Below, piece after piece: positions 8,508 through 9,668 of a stretch of DNA of 64,000 nt (its first letter is position 1; the number at the start of each line of letters is the position of its first letter). Source of the DNA: Armatimonadota bacterium (lineage in GTDB: Bacteria > Sysuimicrobiota > Sysuimicrobiia > Sysuimicrobiales > Sysuimicrobiaceae); NCBI GenBank assembly GCA_031460175.1, contig JAVKGW010000001.1:333021-397020 (forward strand). The letters are read 5' to 3'. Position numbers and translations under genes: made by a program. Below the pieces are notes generated by a model that did not search any database, was not told the DNA's origin, and saw only the letters and a list, made by a program, of their open reading frames with translations.

Positions 8508-9557
8508 TCATGGCACCACCTCGATCCGTCCCTCCCCCTTCCCCAGGACCTCCCCGACCTCCGCGGCCCGCACGCCCCGGGCCGTGAGGGCATCCCGCAG
8601 GGCTGCCATCCGATCCGGGCCGACCGCGAGGAGGAGCCCGCCGCTCGTCTGGGCGTCGCACAGGAGGAGCTGGCAGATCTCCTCGACTTCGGGATGCCAC
8701 CGCGTGTACCGGGAGGCCGCACGCCGGTTTCGGTGGGTGCCGCCGGGGAAAACGCCCTCCCGGGCGAGATCCCAAGCCTCCTCCAGCACCGGGACCCGGG
8801 AGGCGTAGAGGCGCACGTCCACGCCCGAGGCCGCCGCGAGCTCGTGGAGGTGGCCCACGAGTCCGTAGCCGGTCACGTCGGTGCACGCGTGCACACCGAC
8901 CTCCACCATGGCCTCCGAGGCGGCCCGGTTCAACTCCAGCATCACCCGGGTCGCGGCCTCCGCCGCCTCCGGACTTGCCCGCTCCCGCTTGATCCCCGTG
9001 GTGATTACCCCGATCCCCAAGGGCTTGGTGAGGAGGAGCCGGTCCCCGGGCCGGGCGCCGGCGTTCGTGATCACCCGTTCCGGGTGCACGAACCCTGCCG
9101 CCGCGTACCCGAACTTGGGTTGCGGGTCGTCCAGGGAGTGCCCGCCCGCCACCACCACCCCCGCCTCCCGCATCTTTTCCGTCCCTCCCCGGACGATCTC
9201 CGCCACCACCTCCCGGGGGAGCCGGCCCTGGGGGTAGGCGAGGAGGTTGAGGGCCAGAAACGGCCGGGCGCCCATGGCGTAGAGGTCCGAGAGGCTGTTC
9301 GCGGCCGCGATGGCCCCGTAGGCGTACGGGTCGTCCACCACCGGCGTGAACACGTCCATGGTAAGGACGAGGGCCCGTTGGGCATCGAGCCGGTAGACCG
9401 CGGCGTCGTCCCGGGCCTCCAGCCCCACCAGGAGGTTGGGGTCCGGGGTCGGCGGGATCCACGCCAGGATCTGTTCCAGGTCCTCCGGACCCAGCTTGGA
9501 CGCTCAACCCGCGCAGTCCACGAGGCTGGTGAGCCGTACCCTCTCCCGCTCGGTCAA
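8508..9557 (-). CDS. selD: Selenide, water dikinase, itself a selenoprotein (in-frame UGA)
   Basis: SelD makes selenophosphate from selenide and ATP for selenocysteine and selenouridine synthesis. The frame is split by TGA at 9506-9504. Reading it as Sec gives SLVDCAGUASK, with Sec18 where E. coli has catalytic Cys17 and Lys21 where it has Lys20. Downstream come PNLLVGLEARDDAAVY, AGGHSLDD, TDVTGYGL and CDAQTSGGLL, all typical of SelD. The 17 codons before the UGA start at TTG 9557 with GGAGGGG just upstream. Without them the protein would lack its active site, so a Sec reading is much more likely than a frameshift or pseudogene. It is divergent from a LysR regulator. Confidence 0.9.
9476..9494 (-). 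promoter_or_regulatory. Candidate bacterial SECIS hairpin in selD
   Basis: Nine bases after the UGA the mRNA can fold CUGGGUCC / GGACCUGG, an 8-bp stem with two non-canonical pairs and a GGA loop. The apical G lies about 18 bases past the UGA, within the range used by SelB to bind bacterial SECIS elements. This is a hand-drawn fold; no energy was calculated. Confidence 0.6.
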
Positions 9558-9668
9558 GGACCCCTCCAAAGGGATGAATCCTTCCCCATTATCCCCCGAA
9601 ATCCCGCGAACGCGCGTGGATCCCCCCTGGTGGAGATGGAATTCCCTCGCGTATAGTGCAGGTAGGGG

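What the first reader, a model, noticed from the sequence alone, without database searches (positions are those of the whole stretch)
8508..9557. selD is itself a selenoprotein with Sec at the catalytic position
The selD frame is interrupted by TGA at 9506-9504, at the position of the catalytic cysteine (E. coli Cys17). Upstream codons keep the SelD N terminus in frame from TTG 9557, and a SECIS-like hairpin follows the TGA. Automatic annotation would call a truncated protein beginning at 9428 and lose the active site. It implies a full selenocysteine system (selA, selB, selC) elsewhere in this genome.
Basis: partly seen in the sequence, partly recalled or inferred. Interest (0 to 1): 0.75.

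Follow-up and report, generated by a model that had tools for sequence, protein, structure and literature searches.

The report
Selenium-containing SelD enzyme gene
The gene for the enzyme that activates selenium (SelD) itself contains a selenocysteine codon at its active site, as in many bacteria; the case is real and complete but ordinary, apart from the RNA signal that makes the codon work, which sits about 16 bases closer to it than in sister families of this phylum.

Summary
The selD frame runs from TTG 9557 through TGA 9506-9504 to TGA 8510-8508 (349 aa). It scores 380 bits against TIGR00476, and the TGA aligns with E. coli SelD Cys17. All 36 Sysuimicrobiota genomes (own included) whose main SelD match reaches the active site carry one in-frame TGA. 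In a wider set of 66 SelD genes, 55 have Sec there and 11 have Cys. A second selenoprotein is present: FdhA (RT-U-HAPSV).

A hairpin at 9494-9476 meets the published criteria for a bacterial SECIS. Its codons are the least synonymously variable six-codon run of the gene. In sister families that signal lies elsewhere: the conserved hairpin is about 16 nt further downstream, and some genes carry both.

SelD with Sec is long known and the second commonest bacterial selenoprotein. This is therefore a new member of a known kind. The only modestly new point is the within-phylum shift of the SECIS hairpin.

The parts
8508..9557 (-). selD, selenide water dikinase, 349 aa with Sec18 (= E. coli Cys17); TTG start, TGA stop at 8510-8508
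   Evidence: (TIGR00476 379.6 bits, cut-off 125)
9561..9567 (-). Shine-Dalgarno-like GGAGGGG before TTG 9557
   Evidence: relatives L016, L017, L019, L021 have a similar purine-rich motif (GGAGG or GGGAGG) in the same place
9504..9506 (-). UGA read as selenocysteine, catalytic position
9476..9494 (-). SECIS hairpin CUGGGUCC-GGA-GGACCUGG: 8 bp, 3-nt loop starting with G, 17 nt after the UGA, -9.7 kcal/mol; codons of peptide LGPEDL
   Evidence: lowest synonymous variation of 174 six-codon runs in the family

Best explanation
The gene encodes selenophosphate synthetase SelD in which selenocysteine replaces the catalytic cysteine. SelA on tRNA-Sec makes Sec-tRNA from selenophosphate. SelB binds the hairpin 17 nt after the UGA and delivers Sec at that codon. 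SelD then uses the Sec in its flexible N-terminal loop to handle selenide and makes selenophosphate from selenide and ATP. SelD therefore depends on its own product, a feedback expected for every Sec-containing SelD. The product serves at least SelD and the Sec-containing formate dehydrogenase FdhA; a selenouridine synthase (YbbB) was not found. Shown by sequence: frame, homology, machinery genes, hairpin and its conservation. Inferred: Sec insertion in the cell and enzyme activity.
For: SelD family match and alignment of UGA with Cys17. selA, selB and tRNA-Sec in one cluster. Sec at this position in all active-site-covering main copies of the phylum (one extra Cys-type paralogue apart), and in 55 of 66 SelD genes in a wider set. 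Coding continues on both sides of the UGA: amino-acid difference 19% before and 31% after, versus 34% for the rest of the gene, with synonymous differences of 62% and 45% versus 49%. Hairpins pass the bSECIS energy rule (at most -7.5) in 60 of 68 distinct Sec genes and 0 of 6 Cys genes. Synonymous sites are most conserved exactly in the hairpin. FdhA with RT-U-HAPSV is a second selenoprotein.
Against: For this gene alone the hairpin is only modestly better than synonymous recoding of the same peptide (z -1.94, p 0.067), because the peptide GPEDL itself favours it. There are no protein data, and the efficiency of UGA reading is not tested at the bench.
Confidence: 0.97

Rival explanations
1. 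The TGA is a sequencing or assembly error in a Cys-encoding selD (TGC or TGT).
For: Metagenome assemblies can hold single-base errors.
Against: The same TGA occurs in other genomes at 92%, 80%, 69% and about 60% identity, and a SECIS hairpin plus the full Sec machinery accompany it.
Confidence: 0.01
2. A decayed gene or a real stop, with the functional product starting at GTG 9428.
For: The 306-aa frame is open under table 11.
Against: Residues before and just after the TGA are under protein-level constraint at least as strong as in the rest of the gene; the product would lack the Sec/Cys and Lys of the active-site loop; the homologues are full length.
Confidence: 0.01
3. UGA is reassigned genome-wide (for example to Trp) and the match with Cys17 is accidental.
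For: The frame is open when UGA is read through here.
Against: selD itself ends in TGA at the conserved end of the protein, other searched genes (thioredoxin, peroxiredoxin, selA, selB) have no inner TGA, and tRNA-Sec is present.
Confidence: 0.005

Closest known systems
Sec-containing bacterial SelD (for example Moorella, Carboxydothermus, Pasteurellales; PMC1794560, PMC4561486)
   Same: Sec at the Cys17 position, full Sec machinery, SECIS inside the coding region
   Different: Only in detail: Ser instead of Cys at the Cys19 position (CAG-U-ASK); hairpin 17 nt from the UGA
E. coli SelD (PDB 3u0o), Cys form
   Same: Same family and active-site loop
   Different: Cys17 instead of Sec
Bacterial SECIS model of bSECISearch (as given in PMC13188914)
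   Same: All listed criteria met
   Different: Loop GGA, not the GGUC(U) loop of E. coli fdhF, which this genome's own fdhA keeps

Membership tests
SelD (selenide, water dikinase) | Match to curated equivalog model over the cut-off | tested here: met
   TIGR00476 379.6 bits, cut-off 125; NF002098 365.7, cut-off 299
SelD (selenide, water dikinase) | Cys or Sec plus Lys in the N-terminal catalytic loop | tested here: met
   U18 and K21 align with Cys17 and Lys20 of E. coli
SelD (selenide, water dikinase) | Selenophosphate synthesis | not testable with these tools
   needs an enzyme assay
Bacterial selenoprotein | In-frame UGA aligned with a redox Cys of homologues | tested here: met
   55 Sec and 11 Cys genes at this position
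Bacterial selenoprotein | selA, selB and tRNA-Sec in the genome | tested here: met
Bacterial SECIS (bSECIS) | loop 3-9 nt, stem 4-16 bp, G in the first two loop positions, spacing 16-37 nt, energy at most -7.5 kcal/mol | tested here: met
   loop GGA, 8 bp, spacing 17, -9.7 kcal/mol; model from PMC13188914
Bacterial SECIS (bSECIS) | SelB binding and Sec insertion | not testable with these tools
   needs a reporter or binding assay

The most novel reading that the evidence does not exclude
Within Sysuimicrobiota the selD SECIS has moved. The window's family uses a hairpin 17 nt after the UGA, while most sister families use a different hairpin 32-33 nt after it. Genes with both hairpins suggest a handover through a double-signal stage. 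The conserved peptide LAQVLR of many other Sec-SelD proteins would then be dictated by the RNA hairpin, and is released once the hairpin has moved.
Probability: 0.75. Interest if true: 0.4.

Novelty: new member of a known kind. Interest (0 to 1): 0.27.

Why it matters
It shows that Sysuimicrobiota, a phylum known almost only from metagenomes, decode selenocysteine, and it warns that its selD is truncated by ordinary gene calling. The paper describing the phylum does not contain the words selenium or selenocysteine (PMC11604079). The shift of the SECIS hairpin between sister families gives a natural experiment on how much distance between UGA and hairpin SelB tolerates, and on how an RNA signal inside a gene dictates amino acids.

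Tried and rejected
Simple folding with dinucleotide shuffles did not single out the SECIS. RNAalifold on 7 Sysuimicrobiota sequences gave no compensatory pairs, because that set mixes the two hairpin positions; separating them resolved this. A fold z-score in a fixed 38-nt window was uninformative for the window gene (z -0.16), since that window covers both positions. Sequencing error, decay and code reassignment were rejected as set out under the rivals.

Full report
Observation. On the minus strand the frame TTG 9557 - TGA 8510-8508 contains one inner TGA at 9506-9504. Read as Sec, it gives a 349-aa protein that matches SelD models far over their cut-offs and E. coli SelD (3u0o) at 6.8e-80. 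The UGA lies on Cys17 and Lys20 is kept; the E. coli Cys19 position is Ser. Relatives start at the same place with GTG, and two have stops a little upstream. Table 11 alone gives a 306-aa frame from GTG 9428.

Machinery. The window lies in G000:C1:333021-397020, a 2.49-Mb genome, 98.9% complete. On contig C3 lie, on one strand and in the order selA (570 bits), selB (352 bits), tRNA-Sec (82 bits, anticodon TCA), closely spaced. The genome has one SelD, with 1 TGA; two further, much weaker hits (31% and 28% identity) have none and are likely other kinases or ligases of the same superfamily, which was not checked. A second selenoprotein is FdhA: a TIGR01591 match of 688 bits with 1 TGA, in the motif RT-U-HAPSV. 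Its own hairpin lies 18-19 nt after the UGA with a GGUC(U) loop like E. coli fdhF (the E. coli comparison is from general knowledge). Peroxiredoxin and thioredoxin matches hold no TGA. YbbB was not found.

Relatives. Of 66 SelD genes readable at the site (the window's own counted), 55 have UGA and 11 Cys. In the window's phylum 43 genomes were searched and 38 have SelD. In 36 of them the main copy covers the active site, and all 36 carry one TGA; the other two are partial matches that start at residues 198-200. One genome has an extra Cys-type or other non-TGA paralogue at 43% identity. Named records among the nearest are Armatimonadota/CSP1-3 MAGs; CSP1-3 is now Candidatus Sysuimicrobiota. 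This excludes a sequencing error.

Coding test. Among seven Sysuimicrobiota genes, amino-acid difference is 19% before the UGA and 31% in codons 18-43, against 34% for the rest, with high synonymous difference throughout, so both sides of the UGA are translated in one frame.

SECIS. The published bacterial model asks for a loop of 3-9 nt, a stem of 4-16 bp, a G in the first two loop positions, 16-37 nt from the UGA, and at most -7.5 kcal/mol (PMC13188914). The window's hairpin CUGGGUCC-GGA-GGACCUGG (9494-9476) has a loop of 3, 8 bp, loop GGA, 17 nt and -9.7. Across distinct sequences 60 of 68 Sec genes but 0 of 6 Cys genes reach -7.5. Mean z against synonymous recoding is -1.83 for Sec and +0.26 for Cys; the window alone has z -1.94, p 0.067.

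Hairpin position. The best hairpins fall into two groups, 16-17 nt (24 genes) and 32-33 nt (37 genes), with few between. The window's family (window, L092, L016, L017, L018, L096) uses the near position. There the codons CTG GGT CCG GAG GAC CTG form the least synonymously variable six-codon run of 174 in the gene (0.06 against a mean of 0.41), while the codons of the far position vary even in amino acid. In 11 sister-family genes the least variable run of 170 is GAC CTG GCG CAG GTC CTG, followed by CGC (0.00 against 0.45), that is the far hairpin, while the near codons vary. Compensatory changes back the far hairpin: in 35 far genes 6 of 9 pairs show a change on both sides, reached in 2 of 300 shuffles, and 85% of cells pair, against 24-44% for slid registers. 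The near hairpin in 24 genes has 90% of cells paired, against 32-58% slid, but only 2 pairs with a double change. Six genes have both hairpins at -7 kcal/mol or better (L021, L096, L105, L108, L113, L117). On a tree built without the SECIS codons the window's family is a supported clade (SH-aLRT 99) inside a phylum clade that otherwise uses the far hairpin, and near and far need at least 4 changes over the whole tree. Caveats: quick tree, rows are related, thresholds were chosen here, the direction of the shift rests on parsimony, and the few literature searches made found no paper on such a shift.

Comparison with the known. Sec in SelD is long described. [quoted passage not shown] Bacterial SECIS structures in Sec-containing SelD genes were reported (PMC4561486). 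The finding is thus a new member of a known kind; the shift of the hairpin is an evolutionary detail of modest novelty.

Mechanism. Shown: frame, homology, presence of machinery, conserved hairpin. Inferred from the known pathway: Sec insertion by SelB, dependence of SelD on its own product, supply of selenophosphate for FdhA.

Noticed in passing
L019-L021, L097-L120 and other loci, codons +8 to +14 after the UGA: Sister families and several other phyla use a different SECIS hairpin (GCGCAG-GUC-CUGCGC) 32-33 nt after the UGA that encodes LAQVLR; six genes carry both hairpins.
   Followed up: yes
G000:C1:434276 (L137): FdhA of this genome is a second selenoprotein (RT-U-HAPSV) with an E. coli fdhF-like SECIS loop.
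   Followed up: yes
G000:C1:429812-430006 and 432645-434504 (L137): The formate dehydrogenase looks split: its N-terminal 4Fe-4S domain (CPYCGVGCNLELHV) ends a NuoG-like gene downstream, while the Sec-bearing catalytic part is a separate gene upstream, with a NuoF-like gene between.
   Followed up: partly
G030:C34:3959-4951: One Sysuimicrobiota genome has a second SelD-like gene (43% identity) without an inner TGA, beside its Sec-SelD.
   Followed up: no
L025, L033, L035, L042, L069: Cys-type SelD with an open frame continuing upstream of the N terminus, perhaps fusions of the kind reported before (NifS-like or other N-terminal partner).
   Followed up: no
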